From positions 1,674,001 through 1,738,000 of the forward strand of contig JAGKQI010000104.1 in the NCBI GenBank assembly GCA_018806915.1: 64,000 bases of DNA, in the 5' to 3' direction. The position numbers and the translations under genes were made by a program. Every line of letters starts with the position of its first letter. Positions within the stretch are counted from its first letter, which is position 1. Source of the stretch: Phytophthora colocasiae (taxonomy: Eukaryota; Oomycota; Peronosporomycetes; Peronosporales; Peronosporaceae). A model generated the notes under the pieces. The model searched no databases, was not told the DNA's origin, and saw only the letters and a list, made by a program, of their open reading frames with translations. Shown piece after piece: positions 6,826-25,459 of the stretch.

Positions 6826-7275
6826 TGTAACGGGGTTACACGTACAAGTGGTTGTACCACTTGTAACTCTAACAGTTAGGATAACTGTTAGAGGTTGGAA
6901 ATGGGCCTCAGACCTTAGTGTGCTGTACACACCAAAGGATACATGGGCGAACCACATTATTGGATGGTTCGTGTGCATTTGTGCATATTATTGGTAGAAA
7001 GTAACGGATTTCTACCAATCACTGAGCAGAGTTTCTGCCAACCACACGTTGGCAGACCAGATAACAAACAGTTTTAGGAGGTCCATAATTGGCTTATGCC
7101 AAATTCAATAACAGTTCTCATTTTACGGTATTTTGCAGTTTAATTTAGTTATATTTGATTTAATTATACTTATTTAAATAAGTATACTTAAATTAAGTCT
7201 ATTCTAATTGCACGCTTCCTCATATACCTAAGCGCGCGTGTACGCCACCTAATAGGTCTAGGTAGACCTATTACA
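6826..7275 (+). repeat. 5' LTR of element A
   Basis: 450 bp, TGTAACGGGG to CCTATTACA, with 5-bp terminal inverted repeats TGTAA/TTACA. Identical to the 3' LTR except for one A/G change and a 10-nt deletion (CTTTAGAAAT present in the 3' LTR; the copy at 1801 also has it, so the deletion happened here). Perfect hairpins at 6843-6851/6857-6865 and 6867-6877/6883-6893, plus others further on. Confidence 0.95.
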
Positions 7276-7300
7276 CCTGGTAGCACTTTGTAGTCCGTCC
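7276..7300 (+). other. Primer-binding leader of element A
   Basis: The bases right after the LTR are CC followed by TGGTAGCAC. TGG is the usual complement of a tRNA 3' CCA end. I cannot name the tRNA. The same leader, with small changes, follows the LTR at 1801-2234. Confidence 0.6.
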
Positions 7301-7324
7301 CACGACCGACTGCTGTTCGTTCGT

Positions 7325-8310
7325 ATGGAGTCATACGAACGCGGGGTAGAGAACTCCCCAATGGATAAGGGATCCACTGGGACCCCTCAAATGTCCGTGA
7401 CGCGCACGGACTGCGCCCACCTGTCTGATCCAGAGTGGGAGGCTCTCCAAAGACTTTCACAAGTCATTGGAGAGGCAGCGGTAGCGACGATGCTTCGTAC
7501 GCTATCGCCGACAGAGCAACATGGTGTTGCTCTGGGGTACGTGTTAAGGAGCAACGAGATGTTGCTGCCTCGGTGGCTTCCCCTAAGCCACGCGTGGAGT
7601 CGTTGAAACTCCACGTGAGTACCTACACGGGGAAGGAGGACGAGACCCTCCTTCGGTGGCTTGTCGAACTCGACACAGCCGTTGCGGCTCGACGTATCGT
7701 CGATCCGATGTCGAAGGTCGCGTTCGCCATGTCATGTCTTGGCGGACGTGCGAGGAGTTGGGCCTATGGGCGCCGACTCTCGGATCCTACGTGCTTCAGC
7801 ACGTACGAGGTGTTCAAGGAGGAACTCAAGCTTGCGTTTGAGCCTCCGAAGAACGAGTTCAGATCGAGAGCAGAGTTTCTCGATCTGCAACAGGGCAAGG
7901 ATGATGTTCACACCTTTGCCCAGCGTGCTCGATACTTGGTATCGAACATGGTAGCCAACCCGATCGACGAGGCGACCAAGGTCGTCACGTTCATGAAGGG
8001 ACTAAGAGATGGTCCCGTCAAAACATATCTCTTCCGAGAGTATCCGAATACTCTCGAGGAGGCGATCAGCCTTGCAATGCAAGAGGAGTTTAGCCGGCAT
8101 CAAGCTAAACTCCATGCGAACGCGCCGAAGCCGGCGCGTCCTGTTGTGAAGACGGGAGGTCCGGAACCTATGGACCTCTCGAGTGCTACGACTGCTGGTC
8201 AACAGCAGCGTAGATACGGCAAGGTTCGATGTTACAAGTGTAGTAACATCGGTCACTATGCACGCGAGTGCACAGCGGGCGGGCGTTCAAAAAACGCCAA
8301 GGACCAGTAG
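7325..8310 (+). pseudogene. gag: gag of element A, frameshifted
   Basis: Encodes the structural polyprotein that forms the retrotransposon particle. The N-terminal part is open from ATG 7325 (an alternative ATG is at 7361) to about 7570; from there the family-like sequence continues in another frame (KLHVSTYTGKEDE, EEAISLAMQEEF) to a stop at 8308-8310. One indel near 7570 therefore splits it. A CCHC zinc knuckle, CYKCSNIGHYAREC, lies at about 8232-8273 and is the nucleic-acid-binding end of Gag. ATG 7325 sits inside a 10-bp hairpin stem (7318-7327/7332-7341). The total length if joined would be about 325 residues, normal for the family. Confidence 0.85.
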
Positions 8311-8705
8311 GCGCGGGGCGTTCTACTGGTGATGCAGTCTCGCGTGTCGAGCTTGGACACGCGACGATGAGGACTGCTGCCCCCAGCGAGAAGGTTTCTC
8401 GCTGTAAGCTGCAAGATGACAAGCCAAACCTTGTCATCCTGAACGTGATGTCGAAGAGAGCGAACTCTCTTCGTGCCCTAGTGGACTCGGGCGCGTCGAA
8501 CAACTTTGTTCGACAGGGAAGTCTTCGAAGGCTTGACTTCGAAGAGGCCGACACGCCTCGCGGCGTGTTGGAGGTGCGGTTGGCAACAGGTGCCACCGTG
8601 ATGACGGAGATGCTCGTGGTCCGGGTGAGCTTCTCTTACAAACGAAGGACGTTCGTGGTAGATCTTATCGTCTTGGGTTTAGAGGATAAGTTCGACTTGG
8701 TATAA
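8268..8705 (+). pseudogene. pol: Protease region of element A pol, ending in a TAA
   Basis: Overlaps the end of gag in a different frame. The retropepsin active-site motif ALVDSGASNNFV lies at about 8475-8510 (DSGA 8484-8495). The frame stops at TAA 8703-8705, but the same frame continues directly with family-like sequence (GISWLARHGPVITWKK), so the TAA is an in-frame nonsense codon rather than the natural end. The same TAA is found in the fragment copy at 767-769 (minus). The protease would cleave Gag-Pol in the particle. Confidence 0.8.
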
Positions 8706-8816
8706 GGCATATCATGGCTTGCACGGCATGGCCCGGTGATTACCTGGAAGAAACGTACGCTCGTACGCTTCAACAACATACGCGCGACAGAGAGCGATGG
8801 CCTTGTCAGTGCTGCG

Positions 8817-8836
8817 CATGCACCGGCCGGTGCATG
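8817..8836. repeat. Perfect 20-nt palindrome in element A
   Basis: CATGCACCGG followed directly by its exact reverse complement. The core CACCGGCCGGTG is kept in the fragment copy near 640-655. Confidence 0.95.
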
Positions 8837-9139
8837 TGGATCCCCAGTTAAGGCAGCAGCGGCCGCCGCTGCCTCCGATCGCCGCCGGCGACCATCAACG
8901 ACTTTGAGAGTCGTTGGGAGAAAATGTGTGTCGACTCAGAAATCTGAGCCGAAGGGTCGCGGTCACATGAGTGATGGTCAGGTGAATGTGAATCACCTGA
9001 CGCATAAACATCTGAATGATGTTTGTCACATGAGTGATGGTCAGGTGAATCGCATTCACCTGAGAAAAGGTAAAATACCGGTATTACCGGTATCCTTGGA
9101 GGTACTTCAAGCCCCCAAGGGTCGCGCCGACGACGTCGT

Positions 9140-9447
9140 GTCAACTCTGGGAGTTGACGAAGCAAATAAAGTTCGGGGAACCGAAAGGCGTGTGTCAGCT
9201 CTGGGAGCTGACGCCACTGGCGCGTCGCTGCTAGTTCTGGGAACTAGCGAACGTGCATCAGCTCCGGGAGCTGATGATGCGTGTACAAGCGAACGTTCGC
9301 TGCTAGTTCCGGGAACTAGCGATCGTGCGTCAGCTCTGGGAGCTGACGATATGTGTACAAGCGAACACTCGCTAGCGCAGGAAGCTAGCGAGAGCACGTC
9401 GACTCCGGGAGTCGACGATGCGGTTGCTTCATCCGCTCCGGGAGTGG
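9140..9447 (+). repeat. Array of hairpins sharing a CYGGG loop
   Basis: Perfect inverted repeats at 9140-9146/9152-9158, 9194-9200/9206-9212, 9230-9236/9242-9248, 9256-9263/9269-9276, 9302-9308/9314-9320, 9328-9335/9341-9348 and 9397-9404/9410-9417 all enclose the same 5-nt loop, CTGGG or CCGGG. A weaker one with the same loop lies at 9433-9447 (TCCGCT/AGTGGA, one mismatch). A further 9-bp hairpin with another loop is at 9368-9376/9384-9392. Arm sequences differ from unit to unit (TCAACT, TCAGCT, CTAGTT, TCGACT) with the partner arm always changed to match. The fragment at 1-450 has the same array in reverse with some broken pairs. Confidence 0.95.
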
Positions 9448-9929
9448 ACGAAGGCGCAGCGGTTCAGGGAACCGACTGCGCGGCAGGAGGTGCTGGCGGT
9501 TGCAAACGCCCAGCACCCGAACAACCTGCGTGCTCACGTGCAGCAGCGCTGCACGCGATGAGCGGCACTCAAGCAGGGCTTGAAAGTGCGAGTCAGCGGA
9601 AGGAATCCGCTGACGATTGCGATAACGTCCCGTCCAAGGTGCGATGCCTTGGACGTGGAGCACCTGGAGCCGGGCTCCACGGTAGATCTTCGCGGCGCAA
9701 GCTCAGGGAGCTGCGCGAGTCTCAGTCCGGGACTGAGACGGGTGTATCTGCAGTGCAGACACCGAGTGTCGAGACGTTGATTGAACGTCTTGACACGTAC
9801 TGGTACTGGGTTACAGTACCAGAGGATGCGGTTGGAGAATCCGCCGACGAGTGCGTCGGCGTTGACCGCACTTCCAACGATGAGTTGGAAGCGCTTCGCA
9901 CGAGACTTGTACGATGGACGCATCGAACA

Positions 9930-11655
9930 AATTTGCATTCTCTCGGATATCGAGAGAGTGGAGCGCGAGGCCGAAGAGCTGAAGCAGCTCGTCGTCGATG
10001 GGATCACTGAGGGTGATGACTCCCTCAGTGCGAAGACTAAGAAGCAGCGCTTCGAAGAGCAGAGTTGGGACTCGTTGAGGTCGAGTCCCTACTACGAAGT
10101 TCTGCGGGAGTACAAGGATGTACTCCCGGACGAGATTCCTTCGGAGCTTCCGAAGGACAAGGGCGTACAGCACGAGATTGATCTCGTGCCGGGCACGAAG
10201 TACTGTGTTACACGGCAGTGGCCACTGCCGCGTGAACAAGTGCAAGCGATCGACGACTTCTTTGAAAGTCGTCGTCTTGCAGGTCAAGTGCGGGAATCAA
10301 AGTCCCCGCACAGTGCTCCAACGTTCTGTGTTAAGAAACCACAGGGCGGCTGGCGCATCGTTCATGCGTATAACAAGCTGAACGATGCGACGATACCGGC
10401 GCAGACGCCGATACCGCGAAAAGATGTTATCATCGATTCGATGGCCTTGAGCACTATCTTCAGTGCTCTAGATCTGCGTGATGGATTCTACCAAATCCTC
10501 ATGCGTGAGAGGGACATCCCTCTCACAGCGGTAAGCACTCCAAGCGGTATGCTTTGGGAGTAGCTCGTCATGCCGCAGGGACTTAAGAACGCCCCTGCGA
10601 CGTTCAATAGATGCGTGACACATCTATTGCGCTCGGTGCGCGACTTCGCACCGAGCTACTTCGACGACGTGTTCGTCCACAGCCGGGCTGTGAACGGGAA
10701 GACGGACATTGAGATGCACAAGGTGCATCTCCGGAAGCTGCTAGAGCTTATGAGGAAACATAAGCTCTATGCGAACCTGAAGAAGTGTATCTTCGGGGCG
10801 AGCGAGATACCCGTGCTGGGGTGTCTCGTGGGGAAAGACGGCGTGCGCCCTGACCCAGAGAAGGTCAGAGTGATCAATGAATGGCCCACGCCATCCAATG
10901 TGAAGGAACTGAGGCAGTTCCTTGGGCTTGCCACGTACTTGTGCAAGTACGTGGACAACTATGCGGGCAAGATTCGCCCGTTGTTACAGCTTCTTAAGAA
11001 AGAAGCTGAGTGGATTTGGACGACCGAGTGCGAGGAGGCATTCGGTGCAGTCAAGCAGGGCTTGACTGAAGCGCCGATCTTGGCCGTGGCGGACCAAGAT
11101 CGTCCATTCCACGTAGTGTGCGATGCATCCGACTTTGCAATCGGATGTGCATTGATGCAACACGATCACGAAGGGCGTGATCGTGTAGTCTACTATCAAT
11201 CGCGTCAGCTGAAGCCAGCTGAGCGTAACTATCCCGTACATGACAAGGAGCTCCTTGCCATGAAGTATGCACTCGCAAAGTTCCGAGTGTATCTACTTGG
11301 GAGTAGACCGTTCGTGGTCTATACAGACCACGCATCATTGCGTACGGCGATTAAGTCGCCGCACATCTCGCAACGTATGGCGAGATGGTTGTCCTTCTTC
11401 GCGGAGTACAACTTCCGGGTGGAGTACAAACCCGGAAGACTCAACGTAGTGGCCGACGCGTTATCGCGTCGACCTGACTATGCGGAGACGGTCGACGCCA
11501 ACGCAGTTGGCGTCGTGAGGACAAGTGTGCCGTCGTCAACGATGATTGACGACGTGAAGAACGCGTATGCAAGGGATGCAGACGCGAAGGGGCTGCAGGA
11601 GTTCCTCGCAGCACCTTCCGACGTGGCACGTCGGAAGCTAACCCCTCATCTTTGA
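9930..11655 (+). pseudogene. pol: Reverse transcriptase and RNase H of element A, with an internal TAG
   Basis: The open piece to 10560 holds the RT start (KSPHSAPTFCVKK, GWRIVHAYNKLNDA, ALDLRDGFYQI) and ends in TAG 10561-10563. The same frame continues at once with LVMPQGLKNAPATF and SYFDDVFVHS, the YxDD polymerase active site (about 10660-10670). A TGG codon turned to TAG is the simplest reading. RNase H follows (VVCDASDFAIGCALMQ, YTDHASLR) and ends near VVADALSRRP at about 11470. The next stop is TGA 11653-11655, also in frame with downstream integrase. The enzyme would copy the element RNA into DNA and remove the RNA strand. Confidence 0.88.
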
Positions 11656-12208: not shown

Positions 12209-13139
12209 TGTAACAGGTTTATTCTCTCACTGCCAGTCAGTGGTTCGTCGCTCGTGTGCTGCGCTGGGTGGTGTGCCCAAGGATCGGGTGTCGAAGGACA
12301 CTCTTCAACGTCAACTGGTCGTCTCCTGGCTCGGTTCACCGCGCCGGCTCGTTCGTCGTTCGTCAACGAAGAACTTGCCTACTTATATTAACGTATGTGA
12401 ATATACACTACGCTCGTCTCTTTCGTTCGTCTCTTTCGTTCGTCTCTTTCGTTCGTGCCTGCGCTTTCAGACGTAAACGTATACAGCTTCCCTGGTTGTC
12501 CCTCAGTCCCGTGACACCTGCTTCGGGCGTACCAATCGAACCGTTGTCCGCTATTGGCTGCCACAGACGCCACCGCCTGAGAACCCAACTAGTTCTACTG
12601 ATCCGCCTGGTCGCTCAGCTATGCAGCAGCTCGCTCGCTACTGACTTTGTTCGTCGTTTAGAGCGGGTCCTCGGACTCCACTCGTGGTTGTCTCCACTTC
12701 GTTCGTCGTTTAGAGCGGTCCCGTTGGACGCCACTCGTTGTTGTCTCAACCTTCAGTAGCTCTTAGCCACTGGCTTCGTTCGTCGTTTGTAAGCAGTTCC
12801 CTCAGGTTCCACTTGTGGTTGTCTCCACCTTCAGCTACACTTCACTGGTCGTTCGTCGTTTGGAGTGTGTCTCGCGACTCCTTCCTACTTGGTCAATTCG
12901 CAACTGCTTCCCACCCGGTCGATTCGAGACTGACTGTCCAGTCCGCCATTGCGTTCGTCTGGCATCCCAGTCAGTCGTAGCTTCAACGTAGGCCTGTCTG
13001 CCTGCATGTTCGCGAGCGTCTCTCTCATTGGTGCTCCAGCGAGCCACTTCGAAGTCACTGGTAGGATTCTTCCATGCCTTGGCTGCTGTGGGACGGTAGA
13101 TCCCAGATCCGCGCCCTTCTGCAAGTCAGGCATATTACA
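12209..13139 (-). repeat. 3' LTR of element B (left copy)
   Basis: Reads TGTAACAGG to CATATTACA on the plus strand. It contains three copies of a TCTCTTTCGTTCG unit near 12416-12456, and about four degenerate longer units starting with TTCGTTCGTCGTTT between 12648 and 12880. Confidence 0.95.
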
Positions 13140-13370
13140 CGCCTCCATCCACTCCAAGGTCTTCCACGACCTTGCCGCGGTTAAACAAGTCTTCGTACTC
13201 AGCGACAGAATACCATCGTCCTCCACCGTCATTTGATTCGTGTCGGCCACTGCCGTGTCCAGTTCCGTGTTGCTGCTGCGTTCGTGTACCGGCGGGCCGT
13301 AACTGGTACTCCAACACGTATTGCTCCAGCTCTGTTTCTTCTTCGTCGTCGGCAAACTTCCACCAAGAGT
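13135..13370 (-). pseudogene. pol: Probable C-terminal tail of element B pol in another frame
   Basis: An acidic piece, FADDEEETELEQYVLEYQ, then RWYSVAEYEDLFNRGK, ends with a stop at the edge of the 3' LTR (13135-13139). It sits in a different frame from the integrase and takes over near 13365. The composition and the stop at the LTR edge suggest that it is the real end of pol. Confidence 0.55.
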
Positions 13371-16024
13371 TCGTCGTTGGTGTTGGCCACGCCCTCGTTT
13401 GCCACTGCCGTCGCATTTCGTTTCTCACCTCGTCTCGGAATCGCTGTGTTAACAAGAGCCGTCGCTGCTCGTGCAGTCGGTTCTGTCGCCTCGTCATCGT
13501 TTTTCCGTGAGCACTCATCTTCATACTCAAGCTGCTCCTCCAGATCTCGAGCTGCTGCTTCCAAAAGCACCGTCGGTCGCCGATACGTCGCAAGAAACGA
13601 CACGTGAGCTATAAATTGCTCGTGTTCTGGGCCGTCATCCTCCCGTTCAACCAAGAAATTCTCGTAACCGGCCGATTCTACTACTCGTAGAGGTCCTATC
13701 CATTGATGTACGAACTTGGAAGCTTTAGGGCCTCTCGGAGGTCGGAACATCCAAACTCGATCACCTGGCGAAAATTCTCGTTTCACGCGCACTTTCCTAT
13801 CGTAGTAACGAGCTTGCCGTTGCTGCTCTCGTATTCTCGCTCGTTCTGCACATTCGTGAGCAACTTTCAACGTATCCAAGAGCTTCTGATGATGTTTAAC
13901 CAGATCACCAGCCTCCGTAACTCGTGTAGCGCGTAGAAGTTCGTTGGGAGCTCGTAGCCGTCGTCCCATCATCAGTTCATTTGGCGAAAGTAACACAGTG
14001 GAGTGACGTCCCGAGTTATACGCGTACACGGCGTAGCCCACCCACGTGTCCCAGTCTCGTTGTCGTTCATCGCTCATGTAGGTTGTCACACAGTCCTTCC
14101 ACGTCCTGTGAAATCTCTCTACAAGTCCTATCATTTGTGGCCTGTAGGGAACCGGGTTGATCTGCTGTGCCTGTAGCAGTATCACCAATTCTTCGATCAC
14201 TTTCCCCACTAACTCGGGTGCACCGTCCGTTAAAATCTCTCGAAATGGTCCAAACCGAAGCACTACCTGCTTCATCAGAAACTCGGCAATGTTTTCTGCT
14301 GCATGGTCTTTCACTGCAATCGCAACTGCATAACGCGTCACATATTCCACTGCGGCGATCACGTATCGTTCTCCTCCGTCAGTAGCTGGTAGCGGGCCTG
14401 CTACATCAAGTGCCCATCGGTCACCGACATCACCTCCTCGAATACTTCGTAATGGCGGCACTACTTCACGTGGGCGCGCCTTTCGGCTTCCGCATTCCTG
14501 GCATCCGAGTACCCATCGTCGCACTTCGTCTCTCAACTTCGGCCACCAATACTGCTGCGCAATCCTCGCATACGTGTGAGCTGCACGGAGATGTCCTGAC
14601 CATACGCTGTCGTGGCACTCCTTGAACACCGTTGCCCATAATGCTGGTGGAAGTACAATCCTTCGTTGATTCGGCGTCTCTATCACAACCAGGCCAAACA
14701 CCTTACTGATAGCCCGTCCGTGAAAAGTTCCAGCTCGTAACATTTGCTGTACCATCTTACTTTTCGACTGTTCATCCATGATCTCTGCATCGGTTAGTTG
14801 TAGCGTTGGTTCCTTCATTCGTTGGCGTCGTACGGCTGCTACATCACGTTCTCGATGTGAATCTCCACTCGAAGGTCTTGCACGTGGCTGCAAGGTGTCA
14901 TCCGTTTCGTCTTCAATGGGGTTCCGCCGTACTGCGTCGAGTTCGTAGCTTCTTGCATCATCATCCGTAGCTGGACGTGGTGAATCACTCACACCTTCTC
15001 CCGATTCTCGTGTCATCCTCCCGTCATCACGGGCAATCCCGGAACGCGTCGCTTTCGTACTCGTCTTTGGGTCCGTTCGTACTTCGCCTGACTTATCACC
15101 GCCACTTGACATGCCGTCGGCCCAAGTCACCGTCTTTCGTTGCTTCCGTTTCCTATTGGTGCTGTCACTCGTCGTTGCTGCTATCGCTCTATTCGCCGTT
15201 GGTTCCGTGGCTGGAGTGGTTCCCGTCGTTGCTGATGGTGTTTCCGACGTTCTCGTAGTAGTCGCTGATCTCGACGTCACCGTTGATACTGCCAATGGTG
15301 CTGGTGCCGTCGTGTCCGTCGCTGCTGAACCCACCGTTGCACGTTCCGTCACTTCAGCCACTCCCGTCATTAATGCTCTCTTCGTTGCCGGTCTGACTGC
15401 TGAAGTTACCATAGTCGTCGTCGGTCCCGGTGCTGGAATCATTGTGACGGCTACTTCATCTGTTCTTATGGTAGTTGCGTCATTACCGTCGCCGGGTTTT
15501 CTCGCGTCAGGCTCCCCTTCGTCCGACACCAACGATTCTTTGATCGCCGCCTGTTCTCTCCTACGTTTTTCACCTCTCGTCATCGGGCGTTCAGCGTTGT
15601 TCGTTGCGGACTTCGCTGGTCGTTTGCCTTTTGGTCGCCCTGCTCGACGTCTCCTTTCCTCGTTACGCTTTGGCTCTGTTGAACCCGGAGGTTCCACAGT
15701 GGCATCCACGATCGTGCTGACTAATTGCTCGATTACCGCGCTTACTTCTTCGTCCGGCGTACTCGCTTCCTTGCTCTGGTCGTTCGTCACCGGTTCTAGA
15801 GTACCCGTCGTGTGTTCGTCGTGCGTTGCAACTTCCATCCGCGTAACCTCGCCCGTGTTCATGACGGTTCGTTGGGTCGTTCGTGATGGCTTCTCTCGTC
15901 GCGCTCGTCGTTGCCTTCCTATCGCTGCTCGTACCGTAGCTGCTACTGGCGCCCTCGATAATGCATCGGCGACCACATTCGTGGGGCCCGGTCGATAGTG
16001 CACTTCGAAATCAAATTCTTGCAA
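13365..16024 (-). pseudogene. pol: RNase H end, long disordered insert and integrase of element B
   Basis: Begins with QEFDFEVHYRPGPTNVVADA, the usual end of RNase H. A Thr/Ala/Arg-rich disordered stretch of roughly 380 residues follows, which is rare at this place. The integrase then has HDSVWSGHLRAAHTY and LGCQECGSRK (zinc HHCC, about 14500-14620), WALDVAGPL and LTDGAPELV (catalytic Asp residues) and GLVERFHRTWKD (catalytic Glu). The C-terminal part has GDRVWMFRPPRGPK and KFVHQWIGPLRVV, the GPY/F module. After about 13365 the continuous frame becomes Arg-rich nonsense to 13229, and the plausible C-terminus lies in another frame. Confidence 0.87.
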
Positions 16025-16499
16025 AGGTAAGTGCCCATCGATGCAGTTTTCCAGTTAAGTGTGGACTCGTCATCAGCCATTTTAACGCAGCATGATCCGT
16101 GATGATCTCGAACTTGCGTCCATACAGGTAAGGCCTGAAGAGCTTAATGGCCCACACGACAGCAAAACATTCCAACTCCGTGATCCCGTACTTTCCTTCT
16201 GTCTCACTGTTCACTTTACTGGCGAACGCTACTGGTTGCCAACCTTCACCTTGATCCTGCATCAGACATGCACCCAATCCAACCTTACTCGCGTCTGTCA
16301 CTACTCGAAATGGTAGCCGAAAGTCTGGGTAAATGAGCAGAGGCTTCGCAGTTAATATGTCCTTCACGCGTTCGAAAGCTGTCTTCTGTGCATCTCCCCA
16401 TTCCCAGGCAACGCTTTTCCGTAACAGCTTCGTGATAGGCGCCATGATCGTACCAAATCCACTCAACGAATCGTCGATAATAACCAGCCAAGTGAGCAA
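16011..16499 (-). pseudogene. pol: RNase H of element B in a separate frame
   Basis: Encodes SFGTIMAPITKLL... replaced in frame by WEWGDAQKTAFERVK, FRVVTDASKVGLGACL, FAVVWAIKLFRPYLYG and ITDHAALKWLM, the tether and RNase H blocks of a Ty3/Gypsy pol. It is joined on both sides to other frames: to RT near 16470 and to the integrase frame near 16020, where one extra T in an ACCTTTGCA context would explain the shift. Catalytic Asp residues of VTDAS and ITDH are present. Confidence 0.85.
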
Positions 16500-18606
16500 A
16501 CCTCTTCGCTTCTACAGCATCGCTAGGCGTCGGGAAGTCTCGTACCGCAGAAACTAACCGGTCCAATGGTCTAACTCCGTCGCTGCTGAGTTCGTGGCCC
16601 AAGTACTCCATTGTTTGGGTCGCGAATTTGCACTTCTTCAGTTTGAGTGTAAGCCCCGCTCTCTCCAACCGTTCTAACACCGCAGCTAATTCTACAATGT
16701 GTCGCTCGATGCCACCTCGCGTAAAAACTACGATGTCGTCTAGATACACCAAACAAGTAGACCAAGTGAGGCCCCTTAACACTCCATTCATTAGTCGTTG
16801 AAATGTCGATGGTGCATTCGTTAATCCGAAGGGCATTCGTACAAACCGGTACAGCCCTCTCTTAGTGGTGAAAGCTGTCTTGTCACGATCTTCAGGTGCT
16901 ACTAGGATCTGCCAATACCCTGCTCGAAGATCCAACGTTGTGAACAACAAGGCACCACCTAATGCCTCCAAAGTTTCGTCAATTCGCGGAAGAGGGTAAA
17001 CATCCTTCTTAGTGATCTTGTTGAGAGCTCTGTAATCGACACAAAAACGTACTTCTCCGTCCTTCTTCCGTACCAGAACCACTGGGAATCCCCATCCGCC
17101 ATTGCCTTCTTCAATTACGCCAGCCTTCAGCATCTTTTCTACGTTGTCGTCAATGATACCGTCATCCGTTTGTGCCTGGCGTCTTCGTTTGAGCATAATT
17201 GGTGAAGCTGTCCCTGTGTCAATGTGATGGTGAACATCTAACGTCGTTGCAGGTGGGCACTCACTAGTGTTCGTCATCAATGATCGGTAAGCCCGTAATA
17301 AATTCAAAACCAACTCTTTCGACTTCGGGTCATCGCTGCCAATATCCACTTCGTTCTCATTCAGGAGTGGCGTCTCACAGTCTCCAAGTTCGCTCAGCCA
17401 GTTTTCTACTCGTTCCGTATCTAGTTGCCCATTCATCGTGAGGATCTCTACATCATCGTCAACGGGTATCCACGTTCCGAGCTGTTTCTTGTTTGGGATC
17501 TTCGCGGACTTGGCATTCGTATTGATAGCGGGTATCCACGCCCTTCCATTTCTCGCGGTTGTCACCGTCGCGGCTAACAGTACCGATCCAATGTGCTTCG
17601 TCGGTAGGAACACACCTCGTTCACCATTCTCAGCAGGAACGGCTACCTCCACTGGCATCACCGTATTTCCAGCGATCTCCGTGCGACTAATCATCCTTAC
17701 TGTTGCAACTCTACCGGCTCCGTCGCCATCATGAGTTTTGAACGGAATTACCACTGTTCGTTCTCCTTCGGCATATCGTACTTCTTGTCGCTGAAAGTCC
17801 ATAGTTGCCCCTCGTGCTTGCATGAAATCCACTCCCAGTAGGAATTCGTTTCCACAGCCAGCAATAATGCATGCATCGGTCGTTAATTCTTCGTCGAACA
17901 CCGTTTTGAAGGTAAACCGCCACACACCAATAACATCCAGCAGAAATCCTCCAATGACTTCTACGTAATCAACGGGAGCTTTGTTAGATACTCGATCACC
18001 GTACTTCATCCAGTCTGTGCCTGCCACGGTGTATCGCGCACCACTATCGAGCTTCACTTGCCGAAATTCGCCATTCACGTTCATTAAAGCTGTCGGCAGT
18101 CCATCGTCGGCTCCAACGTATTCCACCAGATCTTCACGCCGTTCACTGGTAGGTACTTGTGTTGACCGTCGTTGTTTCACTAAACTTACACGTGCAGTGT
18201 CCAGAGATCGCACGTTTCTTTCTGTGAGGTCTTCGCCTTCCAATTGCCGTCGTTGTTTGCGTAATTCGAACGCTTCCCATGCTGCATTCGCTTCTTCACG
18301 CCTCTTACTGTTTAGCGCCGCTGCTACAACTGTTCGTTCGGCTTCAACTTCTTGTTTATCGCGTCGTTGCCGAGCCAATCGCGCCTTCGCTTTCAGTCGT
18401 TTAGCGATCTTCCTTGCAGTTTTCCGTGTCTTCCGAAGACTAGCTACGTCCAGACCTTGCGCCGGATCATTCACTGCGCTAGTGGCTTCCGTACTACCAC
18501 TCGTCAACGACTGGCCACTCCTCATGTGTTCATTCTGTTCATCAGTACTGTTACTCGAGTTCACCTCCGTCGCCACGCTCGTATCTGGTGCCGTCACTAC
18601 ACCCAT
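16285..18606 (-). pseudogene. pol: Protease and reverse transcriptase of element B, frameshifted at the end
   Basis: The frame is open from about 18712; first ATG at 18606. Retropepsin-like motif VKLDSGARYTVAG at about 18030-18060 and LLGVDFMQARGATMDF after it. RT motifs are complete: FCVDYRALNKITKKD, TTLDLRAGYWQI, FVRMPFGLTNAPSTF and VYLDDIVVF with YLDD at 16735-16746. Near 16470 the family-like sequence leaves this frame after HLAGYYRRFV and continues in the next frame, consistent with one extra base. The remaining residues of this frame down to 16285 are therefore out of phase. Confidence 0.88.
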
Positions 18607-19103
18607 GTTAGTCTTCTCGTCATTTGGGTCACTCGTAACTCCGTCGCCATCAGAACGCTCTTTCGCGCCCCCTCCAGTTCTCCTTTTGTGCTCGCCCCTC
18701 CAGTTCCGTCCTCACAAACGTTGCTGTTGGCGGTGTTGGCACTCCATTCTCGTTCTTCATCTTCACGATTGGCACGTAGGTATCGCACAGCTACCATTGT
18801 CGGGCGCGTAGTCGACACATATCGGGCAGATCGCTCGACATCCTCTTCCGTCGCGTCCTTCAGTAGTTCGTCCGTCACTTTCTTGACCGGTGTCTTGTCA
18901 TTCCCATTCAGAGTCGACCAATTTCGTGTCGTCTGGCCGCCCGTCAATTCATTGTTCGTCATCGTGCCATCATTCATCTTGCACTTCTTCCGTTCATGCT
19001 CCTCGTCATTCTTCGTTCGCTCGTCCATACTCGACTCGGTGCTCGGTAGGCTTATGGTGTCCGTGATTGCTGTCGTCGTTGCTTTCCAGTTCACGTCTGC
19101 CAC
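18597..19103 (-). CDS. ORF between gag and pol of element B
   Basis: 168 residues in a frame different from both gag and pol. Lys-, Glu- and Thr-rich with no motif I know (DELLKDATEEDVERSARYVS, TMVAVRYLRANREDEE). The pol frame is open upstream only to about 18712, so this ORF fills the gap between gag and pol. It may be a linker reached by frameshifting, or part of a pol whose frame is broken by an indel. Its end overlaps the pol frame by about 115 bases. Confidence 0.5.
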   Translation of the reverse strand: MADVNWKATTTAITDTISLPSTESSMDERTKNDEEHERKKCKMNDGTMTNNELTGGQTTRNWSTLNGNDKTPVKKVTDELLKDATEEDVERSARYVSTTRPTMVAVRYLRANREDEEREWSANTANSNVCEDGTGGASTKGELEGARKSVLMATELRVTQMTRRLTWV

Positions 19104-19144
19104 TTGCTGGGGATCCCGGGCATTTCTCGGACATCGTACTCCCC

Positions 19145-21547
19145 CTACGACGTCCCGTTCCCGTTTTCCGCTGACTTTAGTGCCTCCTTCCGCTTAGCCA
19201 TGTACTCGTCATTCCTGGCCTTGGCTTTGGGGTCTGGACAGTCTCGCGCCATGTGCCCATGCTTGCTACACGCATAACACTTTGGTCCGACGGTCCAGTA
19301 TGAAGCCCAATGACCGCTCTGCCCACAGATCCGACAACTGGTCTCTCTCGGTGGCGACTTCTTCGAGGTTCGTTGTTTCTGGCCTTCTTCTGCTAACACT
19401 TGCCGTACTGCCGCCTTCAACTTCTTCTGGGGCTTCGCATCTCCTTCTTCGTCACTAGAATGCACTGTACGCTTCGGTTTTGCTTTCTTCCGGGACTTCA
19501 GCTCGTACTCCTCCTCGCTGGTGTCCGTCGTACGCCGTTGCTTGCTCGCTTTGCGAGACTGTGTGTCCCGTTCCTCGTCGTCCGAAGATTCTACGTCTCG
19601 CCGCGCTCGCTGCTTCCGTTCGTCGCGCCGGTTGTCCGCCTTCCTCGCTTTCGTACGTTTCTGAACCGTAGGCTCTGCCCAGTATCGCGAATTCCACTTC
19701 CTTCCTGCCGGCAACTCGTACTTCCCGGTTATGATGTTCCACGCCCCTTTCGGATTCGTATAGAGGACGAGGCCATCTGGATCCACAGCTGCGTAATTTT
19801 TGATTCCTTCTACGGTACCAGATACCGGGACATACACACTACCCACGCCTGGCAAAGTCACCGTCCTCGCCGCGATACCATCCGTGGCTGCCGTTTCAGT
19901 CGTCGCCGTCGTCGTCGTTTGTCCAGTTGGTGCCAGTTGCGAAAGGTTTTCCATCGGGTCATCGATTTCCGTTGCTTTGATCACCGCTTCTTCCAGATTT
20001 TCTGGTTCCTGCTGCTTCACCAACTGACGCGTAGTTTTGTCCATGCCGCGGTAGAATTGTGCCATCAATACGCGTTCACTTACACGGCTTCGTCCTGCTG
20101 CTTTCCGTAGAGCGGCTGCGTAATCAGCATGTGATTCCTTTGCACCTCTTGACCTGGTGTTCACTCGATATTCCGCTAGTGAGATATCCTCCTTCGGTCC
20201 ATACCGCCGTAATAGAGCCTGCTTCAGATGTGTCCACGTGCGTTGATTGTCTGTCAGTCTGCGATTGAAGTCTACCCACCAACATGCGGCTTCGCCCATG
20301 AGCTTGTTCCCCAGGATAAAGTAAAGCGCATGATCACTCCACTCTCCACGTCCTGATTCCTTAGCGCCCTGCAACGCCAAATCGATGCGGTCCGTCCAAG
20401 TGGATACCGTCGCTCCAGTCGTAGGGGTGAACGTTGGCAGTTCCAGATCCTTGACATTACCTCTTCGTCGCCCACGTGCTTCATGACGCTCTCGGCGTCG
20501 CTCGCGTCGTGGTGATCCGCGTTGGTCTCGTCGTCTTCCCCCTCGCGGTTCTCGTTGCTCGTGACGTTCCCGGCGCTGTTCAATCCGTGCGTCTCTTTCT
20601 GATTCGTCAGTGGAACTGTCTTCAGAGCTGCTTCGTCGGCGTTGTCTCCGTCCTGCGTCGTGCCTTCCATTATCGTCAGAGTCGCTTTCACTGCTGGAGG
20701 AGGATGGCTGCCCGTCACCTCCTGGTTGTTCTCGTCGTTGCCGTTCAGGTTGTCGTCTAGGAGGCGCTTCTCGCCGGCCTTGCGATCGCTCTCTCCGTTC
20801 CCGCCCTCGTGACCTACGTCGGTTCACTCGCCGTGCATCTTCATCGGAATCTCGCCGTACATTCTGGTGAGGAGGTCGCTGTGCTTGCTGGTCACGATAT
20901 TCATCTTCTGCAGCCTGTCGGAGTTCACTCCGAGGCCCAGGTTCACGCCGCAACCGTAACTGCCGAACTTCTTCACGGAGCTCGTGAAGTGCTGTCGCCA
21001 TAGTTTCCATTTCGGAGGGTTGATGTACGGGAACGTCGTCATCAGGTTCATCTTCGGCTGCATGTGGCGCGCCTTCACGTACTGGCTCGTTGCCGTCGTG
21101 TTCCTCGGCTACGTCGTTAGCGGTCTCTTGTTGTCCAGAGCCTGGGGCGGCATCCAGTCTCACCACTCGTGGCTGCTCGTCTTCCGTGCGTATCGGGAGT
21201 TCCCCAAGTACAGCGCTAATTAGCTCTCGTCCACTGCGAAAAGCTGTCTGTCCTTCTCCCGAGGCTGCAGCGGTAGCCAAGAAGCGTTCGGCTTCTTCCC
21301 ATTCCTTTCGAGCTTGACTCCTCGTCATGACTGCTGACTCTTCTTCTTCCTCAGCGGGTATAGCGCGTTTGTCTTCATACTCATCAGGACTGATCGTCGC
21401 TTCGTCACTACTGTTCCGGTCGCCTACGGCACCTTCATTAATAGCCTCATCACGGCGTCGAGACTGTCCTCTTCTCGAGCTTTGCGATCGCGTCGCTTTC
21501 TTCCTCGTGACTCGTGTCCGTGCTGTCTCTCGCGTTTTAGTTGGCAT
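19145..21547 (-). CDS. gag: gag polyprotein of element B
   Basis: The frame is open from 21604, but that first ATG overlaps the LTR edge and the primer-binding site, so I prefer the Met at 21547 (MPTKTRETARTRV), giving about 800 residues. The first half is a highly charged, Arg- and Glu-rich disordered region. A capsid-like part follows (WTHLKQALLRRYGP, SRVSERVLMAQFYRGM). Two zinc-knuckle-like motifs are near the end: CRICGQSGHWASYW, which lacks the last Cys, and CYACSKHGHMARDC, a normal CCHC (about 19235-19280). This Gag is longer than usual for Ty3/Gypsy (commonly 300-500 residues). It is intact in one frame. Confidence 0.85.
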   Translation of the reverse strand: MPTKTRETARTRVTRKKATRSQSSRRGQSRRRDEAINEGAVGDRNSSDEATISPDEYEDKRAIPAEEEEESAVMTRSQARKEWEEAERFLATAAASGEGQTAFRSGRELISAVLGELPIRTEDEQPRVVRLDAAPGSGQQETANDVAEEHDGNEPVREGAPHAAEDEPDDDVPVHQPSEMETMATALHELREEVRQLRLRREPGPRSELRQAAEDEYRDQQAQRPPHQNVRRDSDEDARRVNRRRSRGRERRERSQGRREAPPRRQPERQRREQPGGDGQPSSSSSESDSDDNGRHDAGRRQRRRSSSEDSSTDESERDARIEQRRERHEQREPRGGRRRDQRGSPRRERRRERHEARGRRRGNVKDLELPTFTPTTGATVSTWTDRIDLALQGAKESGRGEWSDHALYFILGNKLMGEAACWWVDFNRRLTDNQRTWTHLKQALLRRYGPKEDISLAEYRVNTRSRGAKESHADYAAALRKAAGRSRVSERVLMAQFYRGMDKTTRQLVKQQEPENLEEAVIKATEIDDPMENLSQLAPTGQTTTTATTETAATDGIAARTVTLPGVGSVYVPVSGTVEGIKNYAAVDPDGLVLYTNPKGAWNIITGKYELPAGRKWNSRYWAEPTVQKRTKARKADNRRDERKQRARRDVESSDDEERDTQSRKASKQRRTTDTSEEEYELKSRKKAKPKRTVHSSDEEGDAKPQKKLKAAVRQVLAEEGQKQRTSKKSPPRETSCRICGQSGHWASYWTVGPKCYACSKHGHMARDCPDPKAKARNDEYMAKRKEALKSAENGNGTS

Positions 21548-21584
21548 CCTCGTGCGTTTCGGCTGACGTGAGACAATAAGAGAA

Positions 21585-21603
21585 GGCCCCTGTATCACCA
21601 CCA
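21585..21603 (-). other. Primer-binding site of element B
   Basis: On the minus strand the bases directly after the 5' LTR are TGGTGGTGATACAGGGGCC, starting with the TGG complement of a tRNA CCA end. The tRNA is not identified. Confidence 0.75.
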
Positions 21604-22535
21604 TGTAACAGGTTTATTCTCTCACTGCCAGTCAGTGGGTCGTCGCTCGTGTGCTGCGCTGGGTGGTGTGCCCAAGGATCGGGTGTCGAAGGACACTCTT
21701 CAACGTCAACTGGTCGTCTCCTGGCTCGGTTCACCGCGCCGGCTCGTTCGTCGTTCGTCAACGAAGAACTTGCCTACTTATATTAACGTATGTGAATATA
21801 CACTACGCTCGTCTCTTTCGTTCGTCTCTTTCGTTCGTCTCTTTCGTTCGTGCCTGCGCTTTCAGACGTAAACGTATACAGCTTCCCTGGTTGTCCCTCA
21901 GTCCCGTGACACCTGCTTCGGGCCGTACCAATCGAACCGTTGTCCGCTATTGGCTGCCACAGACGCCACCGCCTGAGAACCCAACTAGTTCTACTGATCC
22001 GCCTGGTCGCTCAGCTATGCAGCAGCTCGCTCGCTACTGACTTCGTTCGTCGTTTAGAGCGGGTCCTCGGACTCCACTCGTGGTTGTCTCCACTTCGTTC
22101 GTCGTTTAGAGCGGTCCCGTTGGACGCCACTCGTTGTTGTCTCAACCTTCAGTAGCTCTTAGCCACTGGCTTCGTTCGTCGTTTGTAAGCAGTTCCCTCA
22201 GGTTCCACTTGTGGTTGTCTCCACCTTCAGCTACACTTCACTGGTCGTTCGTCGTTTGGAGTGTGTCTCGCGACTCCTTCCTACTTGGTCAATTCGCAAC
22301 TGCTTCCCACCCGGTCGATTCGAGACTGACTGTCCAGTCCGCCATTGCGTTCGTCTGGCATCCCAGTCAGTCGTAGCTTCAACGTAGGCCTGTCTGCCTG
22401 CATGTTCGCGAGCGTCTCTCTCATTGGTGCTCCAGCGAGCCACTTCGAAGTCACTGGTAGGATTCTTCCATGCCTTGGCTGCTGTGGGACGGTAGATCCC
22501 AGATCCGCGCCCTTCTGCAAGTCAGGCATATTACA
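21604..22535 (-). repeat. 5' LTR of element B (right copy)
   Basis: Same sequence as 12209-13139 except GTGGG for GTGGT, one extra C in TCGGGCC, and ACTTCG for ACTTTG. Because the element runs on the minus strand, this is the promoter-bearing upstream LTR. Confidence 0.95.
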
Positions 22536-22539
22536 AAGT

Positions 22540-23275
22540 GTTTACACTTCTTGGTTCACAATTGTCAATGTCGACTGCGGATCATGCGCAGACGGACGGA
22601 CAGACCGAACGTGTCAACTGCGTACTGGGTGACACGCTGAAGAGCTACGCTCACTCGTTCCCGCATTGGAGCGAGTGCTTGCCGATGGCAGAGTTTGCCA
22701 TCAACAACTCGGTGCATGCCTCGACAGGGCATACACCGTTCTACGTGAATGCCATGAGGCATCCGCGATTGCCGAGCATGCTCGGCGGGGTAGCTTCCTC
22801 CTTAAGTGGGGGAGGATCTACGGTTGCGTCCGAACAACCGCAGAATGCAACTGATAGCAGCACACTATCAGCTGCGGTGACGCGTGCGACGTCTCGGTCG
22901 AGCAGGAACGAGCGCGCGATGTCTGTGCCGGGCACAGACATGAGAGATGATAGCGAGCAGGCAGGGCCTGCTGCTGACAAGGGCGACAAGCTGAAAGGAT
23001 TCAGCTCGGGTGCGCTAGACTTTGTCCAGCGAAGACAAGCCGTCATACGGTTTGTCCAGGATGCTATCGCAGCTTCTGTCGATCGACAGAAGCTGAACGC
23101 TGATACTGTTGGTAGAGGCAACACAAATGAATTCGAAAAGGGTTCATTAGTTTTGTTAGCTACACAAAACCTACCTAGACATGCAGTGTCTGACTTTGGA
23201 GCAAGCAAGCTTGCTCCAAGATTCATTGGGCCGTTCAAAGTACTTGAACGGCACAGCAACTGCAATACCGGCTGG
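22540..23275 (+). pseudogene. pol: Integrase C-terminal part of element A
   Basis: Continues the integrase across the nested element: LLGSQLSMSTADHAQ, then TDGQTERVN, whose Glu is the third catalytic residue, then SECLPMAEFAINN and GHTPFYVNAMRHPRLP, standard wording for this enzyme. The frame runs through a variable linker (22800-23120) into LAPRFIGPFKVLERH and is then lost by an indel near 23255, just before the next block. The 4 bases 22536-22539 repeat those before element B (12205-12208). Confidence 0.88.
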
Positions 23276-23289
23276 ACATACCGTCCAGC

Positions 23290-23844
23290 ATGAGGCTCCA
23301 CCCGACCTTCTACGTCGGGCGGTTGAAGCCGTACGTGCAGCACGGACTACCTAGGGTTGGTAGTCCGACTGAGGAGTGCGAGAGGCCTGGAAGGCCTTCT
23401 CGAGACCGTCGACACGGTCGATCAACCGGTTCACTCTCGTCCCAAGACCGGACGAGAGGTTCGAGGCAGTCTGAGCCGCCTCGCAGACCTCAGCACGGAG
23501 GACACGAACCTCCTGCTTCAGAGCAGCTATCTCAGCGCTCTGTGTCTGCTCCAGCGCAGCAACTCGATCGTGCAGGGCACGATCGTCATGGTCATAGCGT
23601 TGATCATGCGGAGGGAGTGTTCCCACCCCCTCCGCCGCCGTTGCGCGACGCGCGTGGAGCGATCCGCTGGATTGTTGAGCGGATTGTGGCTCATAAGAGA
23701 ACGAACTCTCAAGGGGTTCGTTTTCGTATTCGTTGGAGAGGATTTCCTCCCCATCGAGATACATGGGAGCCGCGGAACGTCCTGATGGAGGACGTTCCGG
23801 AAATGGTGAGAGCGTACGAAGCCCACCATAACTTGCAGGGGTAA
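23290..23844 (+). pseudogene. pol: Chromodomain end of element A pol
   Basis: Starts with RLHPTFYVGRLKPYV, the usual segment after the integrase core, and ends with a chromodomain (WIVERIVAHKR, FRIRWRGFPPHRDTWEP, about 23665-23800). Chromodomains guide chromovirus integrases to modified histone tails. The key aromatic positions appear to be W, W and W in IRW, IRWRG and DTWEP. The region is shifted in frame relative to the integrase part. Its 3' half overlaps the antisense ORF 24898-23351, so both strands are coding-like over about 490 bases. Confidence 0.85.
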
Positions 23845-24898
23845 GCCCTGCACGAGGAGTGCTGCGGTTAGCCACAGCACTCGGAGCCTCGCGTGGCACA
23901 ATACGACCACGGAGCTCCTTGATGTGATCGGGTACACGGACGACCGTGTACCCCAGGAGATCACTTTCGGTGAGACGTGTTGCCAAGGGTTGGCAACACG
24001 GGCAGGGTGTGCCAAAGGGAACGGCACATGGGATCCCCGCTTCCATGGACTGATCATGGAGGCGTTCACACTTACCACGCGTAGTGTAAGTGTAGTAGCG
24101 ATCGCGAGCCGCAGCAACGCGCTCGCGATATGCCTTCGGGCCTTTGTTGAAGTTTTCAACAAAGGCGTTCCACGACTGACAAAGTGCCTGCCACTCTGGC
24201 ACTTTGCTCTTGCGCGAAGTCTTCTTCGCTGCATAGTATCGGAGCTCGTGGAAGAGTCCGATATAGTAGTCGCGTCTTTGAGTCTCGGACTCAAAGACAA
24301 CCTTAGCGGCGACGTCGTCGTCGTTGATACTGTTGCATGAGTACAACAGTATCGGGTTCGGTGGTGAACTAGCACCGAACCGGTCATGGATTTCTGCCTC
24401 AGTAGGCATCCATGGTGTGCGCACTGGCGGATCAGTGCGCGGGGCAGTGAGCGCCCTCGACATGGGGGACGCTTCATCATCACTGCGCGGACGCTTCGAG
24501 CTTGAAGCGTCCGAGGCCTCATCACGAGGTCGTCGAGATCCCACGGGTGGGTCTGACGTGTCTTCAGACAAAGACACAGGAGCGGGAGCCTTGACATCAA
24601 CCTCCCCCTCCTCGACATCCTCCTCATAGTCGAGGATGTCTTCGTAGTCCTCTCCAAAGAGTTCTTTGAGAGGGACAGCAGGATTCTTAATCTCTGCTAG
24701 AGAAGAAGACTTCTTCTTCTTCTCATGCTTCTCCTTATGGAGAGCATGGTACTTAGTGACAGAGAGCTTCTCTGTCGGACCGCTGGAAGCAGCAGTGCTA
24801 GTGAGCACTGCTGAGGTCGTTGTTCCTGCTGCAGAGGCAGCAGGTGAGGCTTGCGCGTCCGCAGTAGCGGACGGAGACGTGGGCGTTGGCGAGTCCAT
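23351..24898 (-). CDS. Antisense ORF of element A, 515 residues, function unknown
   Basis: An uninterrupted minus-strand frame between the chromodomain and the 3' LTR, starting at ATG 24898 and overlapping the chromodomain at its end. The first 170 residues are disordered (Ser, Thr, Ala, then Lys-rich and Asp/Glu-rich). A more ordered central part (about 180-330) contains QRRDYYIGLFHELRYYA, SWNAFVENFNKGPKAYRERV and a Cys cluster PCAVPFGTPCPCCQP. The C-terminus has a predicted coiled coil (RVAALEQTQSAEIAALKQEV) and ends near 23351. I recognise no family. Antisense ORFs before the 3' LTR are known in some plant Tat-lineage Gypsy elements, but this protein does not look like those to me. It is the only long intact frame in element A. 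Confidence 0.65.
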   Translation of the reverse strand: MDSPTPTSPSATADAQASPAASAAGTTTSAVLTSTAASSGPTEKLSVTKYHALHKEKHEKKKKSSSLAEIKNPAVPLKELFGEDYEDILDYEEDVEEGEVDVKAPAPVSLSEDTSDPPVGSRRPRDEASDASSSKRPRSDDEASPMSRALTAPRTDPPVRTPWMPTEAEIHDRFGASSPPNPILLYSCNSINDDDVAAKVVFESETQRRDYYIGLFHELRYYAAKKTSRKSKVPEWQALCQSWNAFVENFNKGPKAYRERVAAARDRYYTYTTRGKCERLHDQSMEAGIPCAVPFGTPCPCCQPLATRLTESDLLGYTVVRVPDHIKELRGRIVPREAPSAVANRSTPRAGLTPASYGGLRTLSPFPERPPSGRSAAPMYLDGEEILSNEYENEPLESSFSYEPQSAQQSSGSLHARRATAAEGVGTLPPHDQRYDHDDRALHDRVAALEQTQSAEIAALKQEVRVLRAEVCEAAQTASNLSSGLGTRVNRLIDRVDGLEKAFQASRTPQSDYQP

Positions 24899-24989
24899 TG
24901 CGAAATGAACTCGGATTTCTCTCGGGAACTTGACGGTCTTTTTAAGTTCTGTTGATTGACGTATCGAGACCGATACGTCGAATCTTAAC

Positions 24990-24999
24990 GGGGGGATGG
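24990..24999 (+). other. Polypurine tract of element A
   Basis: GGGGGGATGG immediately before the 3' LTR, where second-strand synthesis would be primed. One T interrupts the purines. Confidence 0.75.
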
Positions 25000-25459
25000 T
25001 GTAACGGGGTTACACGTACAAGTGGTTGTACCACTTGTAACTCTAACAGTTAGGATAACTGTTAGAGGTTGGAAATGGGCCTCAGACCTTGGTGTGCTGT
25101 ACACACCAAAGGATACATGGGCGAACCACATTATTGGATGGTTCGTGTGCATTTGTGCATATTATTGGTAGAAAGTAACGGATTTCTACCAATCACTGAG
25201 CAGAGTTTCTGCCAACCACACGTTGGCAGACCCTTTAGAAATAGATAACAAACAGTTTTAGGAGGTCCATAATTGGCTTATGCCAAATTCAATAACAGTT
25301 CTCATTTTACGGTATTTTGCAGTTTAATTTAGTTATATTTGATTTAATTATACTTATTTAAATAAGTATACTTAAATTAAGTCTATTCTAATTGCACGCT
25401 TCCTCATATACCTAAGCGCGCGTGTACGCCACCTAATAGGTCTAGGTAGACCTATTACA
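25000..25459 (+). repeat. 3' LTR of element A
   Basis: 460 bp, the same limits as the 5' LTR. It carries the 10 bases that the 5' LTR lacks and one substitution that restores a perfect GGTGTG/CACACC hairpin. Confidence 0.95.

What the first reader, a model, noticed from the sequence alone, without database searches (positions are those of the whole stretch)
6826..25459. A retrotransposon made almost entirely of short perfect hairpins
Across both LTRs and every coding part of element A (excluding the nested B), perfect inverted repeats with arms of 7-12 bp and loops of 2-13 nt follow each other roughly every 40-70 bases. More than 60 are visible by eye; coordinates of 23 are in the feature list. 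A random sequence should give about one 8-bp arm pair with a loop up to 10 nt per 8 kb (8 loop sizes x 4^-8 per position). The pattern ignores domain and strand of coding, since it also covers the antisense ORF. It is absent on reading from element B and from the host gene, so it is not a genome-wide composition effect. Possible causes: selected RNA structure (packaging, RNA stability, escape from or supply of small RNAs), or a reverse transcriptase that repeatedly corrects quasi-palindromes to perfect ones by strand switching.
Basis: partly seen in the sequence, partly recalled or inferred. Interest (0 to 1): 0.93.

Follow-up and report, generated by a model that had tools for sequence, protein, structure and literature searches.

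The report
Retrotransposon saturated with short perfect hairpins
A jumping gene in a Phytophthora-like genome carries about 150 short perfect hairpins along nearly its whole length, and comparing many copies suggests that natural selection keeps the hairpin stems intact.

Summary
Confirmed, and stronger than reported. Element A (Ty3/gypsy, 6826-12208 and 22540-25459) holds 150 non-overlapping perfect hairpins (arms 7-13 bp, loops 0-16). Hairpins with arms of 8 or more run at 12-14/kb, against 0 in nested B and 0.17/kb in 41116-64000; codon-preserving shuffles average 0.25-1.1 where A has 5-24. All 25 tested segments of A fold far better than shuffles on either strand; B does not.

In 64 loci from the same genome, outside a repeat-rich stretch, variants shared by copies number 0.015 per site in arms, 0.040 in spacers and 0.106 in loops; singletons differ much less (0.092, 0.110, 0.151). 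No paired change occurs in 698 stem pairs there; 9 occur in the repeat stretch. This supports purifying selection on stems and argues against continual arm-to-arm correction. G.T and A.C breaks are equally rare, so both strands seem to matter. A related family shows a weaker version at other positions.

Best guess, inferred only: self-folding keeps sense and antisense RNAs, and small RNAs cut from them, from pairing. A DNA-level role is not excluded. Nine paper searches listed no precedent.

The parts
6826..7284 (+). 5' LTR of element A, with perfect hairpins
   Evidence: Differs from the 3' LTR by 1 substitution and 19 gap columns; 40 full or nearly full LTR matches scored in the same genome, the window's own two included; hairpins
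7435..8310 (+). gag ORF: capsid and zinc knuckle, hairpin-rich
   Evidence: Pfam Retrotrans_gag 1.7e-13, Ty3_capsid 5.1e-10, zf-CCHC 5.2e-6; 10 hairpins vs 0.25 in codon shuffles
8736..10010 (+). ORF between protease region and RT, no Pfam match, with repeated hairpin units at 9195-9373
9781..10563 (+). 5' part of reverse transcriptase
   Evidence: RVT_1 1.2e-6, just below the Pfam cut-off
10570..11655 (+). Rest of reverse transcriptase and RNase H, hairpin-rich
   Evidence: RVT_1 5.2e-14, RT_RNaseH 8.8e-36; 17 hairpins vs 0.62 in codon shuffles
22538..23293 (+). End of the integrase region, behind nested element B
   Evidence: SH3_Tf2-1 6.8e-6, below the Pfam cut-off; relatives carry PF00665/PF17921
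23351..24898 (-). Antisense ORF of 515 aa, hairpin-rich
   Evidence: 24 hairpins vs 1.14 in codon shuffles; 73 of 91 own-genome matches without an inner stop
25000..25459 (+). 3' LTR of element A
12209..22539 (-). Nested element B (Ty3/gypsy), the hairpin-free control
   Evidence: Pfam gag, RVT_1, rve on the minus strand; LTRs 99.7% alike over 932 bp; 0 hairpins >=8
23..1041 (-). Inner piece of a diverged copy (A') of the same family
   Evidence: 67-82% identical pieces aligned to A 8328-9633
1801..2234 (+). LTR of a diverged copy (A'), with conserved stems and changed loops
   Evidence: 74-76% identical to A's LTRs; stem-by-stem comparison

Best explanation
Element A is a young, high-copy Ty3/gypsy LTR retrotransposon of a Phytophthora-like oomycete whose sequence is under selection to fold into many small local hairpins. 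Shown here: the hairpins are real and family-wide; amino acids in arms are no less conserved than elsewhere; variants shared by copies are rare in stems and common in loops; stem energies are held in a narrow range. Inferred: because breaks that would weaken either strand are about equally rare, the stems work on both strands, most simply as self-folding of both sense and antisense RNA. Stems of about 9 bp fold locally and would keep the two transcripts, and the small RNAs cut from them, from pairing with each other, while staying short of the length that dsRNA sensors need (recalled). The effect would be escape from small-RNA silencing. The selection step I hold at about 0.85, the silencing step is a guess.
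For: Excess far above shuffles and controls. Shared variants outside 8960-9759: arms 21/1398 sites, spacers 109/2761, loops 45/424; singletons 128, 305, 64; third codon positions 5/216, 29/370, 10/66. Stem centre 7/758, first outside base 13/160. Against the diverged copy: arms 34/421 changed, spacers 114/916, loops 33/102. Arm length against GC rho -0.31, p 3e-4; energy spread z -4.3 against permutations. Both strands fold equally well: mean z -6.9 and -7.5, p 0.17. Shared G.T and A.C breaks 8:8. 25-mers folding to -5 kcal/mol or better: 40-45% of A on the sense strand, 39-40% antisense, 13-14% of B, 7-8% of a host ORF. Antisense ORF open in 73 of 91 matches. Phytophthora makes 25-nt small RNAs mainly from transposons (PMC3804510, passages).
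Against: No small-RNA or probing data were seen, so the silencing step is untested. Only about 41% of A lies inside a hairpin and a 25-nt RNA from a spacer would be unaffected. Singletons are also somewhat lower in arms than in loops (p 8e-4), so a lower mutation or recovery rate in arms could contribute. In the LTR alone the arm-loop difference in shared variants is not significant (p 0.22). The hairpins were defined in the window copy, which slightly favours low variation in arms. Paired changes do occur in the repeat stretch (9 in 164 pairs). Most other Ty3 families in the genome sample live without hairpins.
Confidence: 0.4

Rival explanations
1. DNA-level role. Closely spaced inverted repeats fold as single-stranded cDNA during reverse transcription, or as cruciforms in the integrated copy (chromatin, insertion targeting). 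Perfect Watson-Crick stems with short loops are what such folding needs.
For: Strand symmetry and no G.U tolerance; excess almost confined to loops 0-15; folding z is larger with DNA than with RNA parameters (-8.2/-8.4 vs -6.9/-7.5).
Against: RNA folds as well as DNA on both strands, so the data do not single out DNA; neighbouring copies of other families thrive without hairpins.
Confidence: 0.25
2. Hairpins are read by a protein: Gag, or the antisense-ORF product, binds short stems of any sequence and uses them for packaging or compaction of the genomic RNA.
For: Stem sequences differ from hairpin to hairpin while length and stability are kept; the antisense ORF is conserved among Phytophthora relatives.
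Against: Loops are the most variable sites, which argues against loop-read packaging signals; a reader of sense RNA only would tolerate G.U; no domain was found in the ORF and its fold could not be predicted. Whether hairpin-poor families carry the same ORF was not tested.
Confidence: 0.12
3. Mutational origin: a strand-switching reverse transcriptase keeps turning imperfect inverted repeats into perfect ones, without any function.
For: Would give strand-symmetric perfect stems with short loops; 9 paired changes in 164 pairs of the repeat stretch 8960-9759; strand bias of breaks is absent.
Against: 0 paired changes in 698 pairs elsewhere and slower change in arms than in spacers, where neutral correction predicts many paired changes and a normal rate; in A against its relatives changes fall on both arms; amino acids in arms as conserved as in spacers; an older reduction of shared variants exceeds that of singletons.
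Confidence: 0.1

Closest known systems
Ty3/gypsy LTR retrotransposons of Phytophthora
   Same: LTRs, gag with zinc knuckle, RT, RNase H; full-length relatives of the RT segment in P. fragariae, P. cactorum and others at up to 87% amino-acid identity
   Different: 20 other Ty3 RT loci of the same genome have no hairpin with arms >=8; DNA of the relatives in other species could not be examined
[quoted passage not shown]
   Same: Structure spread over the whole coding genome; the abstract links it to weaker recognition by host defences
   Different: Here the structure is a chain of separate, perfect, short hairpins on both strands, with no G.U preference, in an oomycete transposon; contrast with GORS anatomy is partly recalled
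Yeast Ty3 genomic RNA mapped by SHAPE (PMC11381356, abstract and section list)
   Same: Same superfamily; folded genomic RNA with a well-folded core
   Different: The abstract describes a structured core and local functional elements, not a genome-long chain of perfect hairpins
Dispersed packaging-signal stem-loops of RNA viruses (recalled)
   Same: Many stem-loops along a genome
   Different: Those depend on loop motifs (recalled); here loops are the most variable sites

Membership tests
Ty3/gypsy LTR retrotransposon | Two LTRs of common origin | tested here: met
   459 and 460 bp, 1 substitution and 19 gap columns
Ty3/gypsy LTR retrotransposon | Gag, RT and RNase H of Ty3 type | tested here: met
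   Ty3_capsid, Retrotrans_gag, RVT_1, RT_RNaseH
Ty3/gypsy LTR retrotransposon | Integrase downstream of RNase H | tested here: inconclusive
   Only a sub-threshold SH3_Tf2-1 match in 22538-23293; 11656-12208 not scanned; relatives carry integrase domains
Ty3/gypsy LTR retrotransposon | Target-site duplication | tested here: not met
   Flanks ccaaa and gtaaa differ; the copy may be recombinant, so this does not speak against the class
Genome-scale ordered RNA structure | Folding energy well below sequence-order controls along the genome | tested here: met
   25 of 25 segments, RNA z -3.1 to -10.6 sense, -4.2 to -10.5 antisense
Genome-scale ordered RNA structure | Selection acts on the sense RNA, with G.U pairs accepted (recalled) | tested here: not met
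   G.T breaks no commoner than A.C: 8:8 shared, 7:8 against A', 6:12 inside stems
Genome-scale ordered RNA structure | Weaker recognition by host defence | not testable with these tools
   No expression or small-RNA data
Dispersed packaging signals | Conserved loop motif | tested here: not met
   Loops 45 shared variants in 424 sites against 21 in 1398 arm sites
Strand-switch (template-switch) palindromes | Paired changes and one-arm replacement | tested here: inconclusive
   0 of 698 pairs outside 8960-9759, 9 variants in 164 pairs inside; changes against relatives fall on both arms

The most novel reading that the evidence does not exclude
A mobile element whose entire DNA, coding and non-coding, is under a second, strand-symmetric requirement: every few dozen bases must be self-complementary within a span of about 30 nt, so that both transcripts and any small RNA cut from them pair with themselves. 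It would be a whole-genome defence by self-folding, evolved in parallel in at least one related family.
Probability: 0.35. Interest if true: 0.95.

Novelty: new variant of a known kind. Interest (0 to 1): 0.87.

Why it matters
It is a clean natural case in which a protein-coding element has become a chain of hairpins without visible cost to its conserved protein sequence, with a hairpin-free element nested inside it and graded relatives in the same genome as controls. It makes directly testable whether transposons can escape small-RNA silencing by structure alone, and whether folding of both strands can be a selected trait of a whole mobile genome.

Tried and rejected
Composition or codon bias: rejected by codon-preserving shuffles, B and 20 other RT loci. 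Tandem repeats as the cause: only 9195-9373 within A; the density and the constraint hold without 8960-9759. Sense-only RNA folding: not favoured. Codon phase of pairing: 32/23/33, p 0.36, not informative. Inferring hairpins in other species from proteins alone: the score was raised for A's RT-RNase H (68 vs 40 in shuffles), for 8736-10010 (141 vs 88) and for several relatives, but not for gag (32 vs 47) or the antisense ORF (87 vs 84); inconclusive. DNA of relatives elsewhere: none confirmed in viral contigs; one distant contig in genome contigs (L093, 40% identity, 3 hairpins >=8 in 4.6 kb). Known RNA families: none at gathering score in 1-41115. Arms against loops in L091 vs L092: 5/141, 5/62, spacers 42/1060 changed, too few to judge. 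Mismatch counts overlap in part and are not independent; A.C is commoner than G.T (26:11, 39:22, 49:34), driven by the RT region, which I do not interpret. Fold of the antisense ORF: not obtained.
Full report
WHAT IS THERE. The window lies in a 92.5-Mb, 105-contig genome. Its proteins point to Phytophthora: the host ORF 41519-45274 has its best listed matches in P. nicotianae (56%), an unnamed metagenome record, Plasmopara halstedii and P. oleae, and the RT segment has full-length matches in P. fragariae, P. cactorum and others at up to 87% identity, with higher values only over parts. Element A is a Ty3/gypsy element: LTRs at 6826-7284 and 25000-25459 (1 substitution, 19 gap columns), gag, RT and RNase H by Pfam, an integrase region split by nested element B, and an antisense ORF at 23351-24898. 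In the same genome 113 RT-RNase H matches (90-100% identical), 40 gag matches and 40 full or nearly full LTR matches were scored; these are lower bounds.

THE PATTERN. With arms >=8 and loops 2-15 there are 77 hairpins in 6826-12208 and 36 in 22540-25459, against 0 in B and 4 in the 22.9 kb of 41116-64000. Arms >=7 and loops up to 16 without overlap give 150, covering 3418 of 8303 bases, with arm lengths peaking at 9. The excess is almost confined to loops 0-15 (116 vs 1.6 in shuffles); a small excess remains at loops 32-74 (15 vs 4.6) and none beyond. Codon-preserving shuffles do not reach it in four coding stretches. In 25 segments of A of about 300 nt (one of them in the LTR) folding is far better than in dinucleotide shuffles: mean z -6.9 for sense RNA, -7.5 for antisense RNA, -8.2 and -8.4 as DNA, without a significant strand difference (p 0.17 and 0.59); 12 segments of B average 0.6 and 0.1 as RNA. 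Four longer folds of 600 nt agree: A sense -10.0, A antisense -14.5 as RNA and -14.8 as DNA, B 0.0.

WHO ELSE HAS IT. Twenty other Ty3 RT loci, all closer to B, have no hairpin with arms >=8 in 28 kb. Four loci closer to A (60-71% amino-acid identity) are graded: with arms >=7, L090 has 10 against 1.7 in codon shuffles (0 of 200 reach it), L091 10 against 1.5 (0 of 200), L092 7 against 1.8 (0 of 200), L089 3 against 1.8 (55 of 200); with arms >=8 L092 is not significant (20 of 200). L091 and L092 are 96% identical, so they are not independent. Their hairpins do not sit at A's positions as a rule: of 224 alignable A pairs 90 are Watson-Crick in L090, and where pairing is lost the difference is on the left side in 65, on the right in 55 and on both in 14. 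One hairpin shared by L090 and L091 has an A-T to G-C paired change. The trait thus belongs to a group of families, while most single hairpins of A are not shared with them.

SELECTION. I aligned 64 loci (all of L002-L068 except L007, L009 and L039, which come from the window's own element) to 6826-12208 and dropped bases fetched twice. I left out 8960-9759, whose repeats can be misaligned. Outside it, variants seen in two or more copies number 21 in 1398 arm sites, 109 in 2761 spacer sites and 45 in 424 loop sites (arm-spacer p 7.5e-6, arm-loop p 3e-15). Singletons, which I take to be mostly mutations after insertion, are 128, 305 and 64; they too are lower in arms than in loops (p 8e-4; arm-spacer p 0.06). 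With the stretch kept in, shared variants are 48/1726, 158/3165 and 55/492. At third codon positions of gag and RT-RNase H they are 5/216, 29/370 and 10/66. Within a stem the centre is most constrained (7/758), then the end pairs (5/160 outer, 6/160 inner), and the first base outside is free (13/160). In the LTR alone the order is the same but not significant. Of 79 testable hairpins 75 are perfect in at least 80% of copies; two, at 7250 and 10574, are broken by an A.C pair in most copies. Because hairpins were defined in the window copy, arms are slightly favoured; this cannot explain the difference between loops and spacers and is small against the gaps seen.

PAIRED CHANGES. Outside 8960-9759 none of 698 pairs shows a paired change. 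Inside it, 164 pairs show 9 variants with a change to another Watson-Crick pair (4 shared by copies) and 2 with a change to a mismatch. Most lie in the tandem hairpin units at 9195-9373, where exchange between units, misalignment, compensation or arm-to-arm correction cannot be told apart.

OLDER DIVERGENCE. Positions 23-1041 (minus) and 1801-2234 (plus) are pieces of a diverged copy, A'. Arms differ from A at 34 of 421 aligned bases, spacers at 114 of 916, loops at 33 of 102. Of 186 aligned pairs 157 are unchanged, 7 became G.T, 8 A.C, 12 other mismatches after one change, 1 changed on both sides to a Watson-Crick pair and 1 on both sides to a mismatch; 86 further pairs fell in gaps.

WHAT KIND OF CONSTRAINT. 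Longer arms are AT-richer (rho -0.31, p 3e-4), and stem energies spread less than in permutations (z about -4.3), as expected if a hairpin must be stable enough but not more. G.T and A.C breaks are equally frequent among shared variants outside the repeat stretch (8:8) and 7:8 against A'; A.C is commoner inside stems (12:6), in wobble stems (39:22) and at stem boundaries (49:34, p 0.048). There is no sign that the sense RNA alone matters. Loop-closing mismatches that stabilise sense (19) or antisense (21) hairpins are balanced (the stabilising types are recalled). Amino acids in arms are as conserved as in spacers (0.727 each against distant relatives), so the hairpins cost no visible protein change and were probably built mainly by silent changes.

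HOW IT MAY WORK. Neutral strand-switch correction predicts paired changes and a normal rate of change in arms; outside the repeat stretch neither is seen. Loop-read signals are unlikely because loops vary freely. What remains is a need for short stems, good on either strand, within about 30 nt. Phytophthora species make 21- and 25-nt small RNAs, the latter mainly from transposons (PMC3804510, abstract and passages), and in P. infestans small RNAs of both orientations map along Gypsy Pi-1a (PMC3522703, passages). In A 40-45% of sense and 39-40% of antisense 25-mers fold to -5 kcal/mol or better, against 13-14% in B and 7-8% in a host ORF. The antisense ORF has no inner stop in 73 of 91 own-genome matches; among its best 120 of 488 relatives the named ones are from Phytophthora and a few are unnamed records. 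It implies overlapping sense and antisense transcripts, though no expression was seen. Self-folding of both strands would hinder their pairing and the action of small RNAs. This step is inference; a DNA-level role is the main rival.

LITERATURE. Nine searches listed no paper whose title or abstract start describes a retrotransposon filled with hairpins. I saw listings, the abstracts and section lists of PMC3950689 and PMC11381356, and passages of PMC3804510 and PMC3522703; most subscription journals are not in the library.

Noticed in passing
window 8600-8838 and 634-872: A 239-bp tract is identical between A and the diverged copy A', whose flanks are about 80% alike. It covers most of the hairpin-free stretch 8569-8816, which also varies little among copies. 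Recombination or a second constraint are possible.
   Followed up: partly
window 23351-24898 (-): The antisense ORF has many Phytophthora relatives (best 120 of 488 listed) but no Pfam match above cut-off; 73 of 91 own-genome matches have no inner stop.
   Followed up: partly
window 41009-41067: A perfect AT-rich palindrome with 29-bp arms and a 1-nt loop lies just before the ORF at 41116.
   Followed up: no
window 45622-61794: An open frame of 5390 codons, holding a 195-bp tandem repeat at 54065-54431.
   Followed up: no
window 9195-9373: Tandem hairpin units inside A, the most variable part of the element among copies and the place of most paired changes.
   Followed up: partly
window 6821-6825 and 25460-25464: The bases that flank A (ccaaa and gtaaa) are no target-site duplication; the copy may be recombinant.
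   Followed up: no
window 29837-29871 and 34594-34630: Single strong hairpins (arms 15 and 12 bp) outside A.
   Followed up: no
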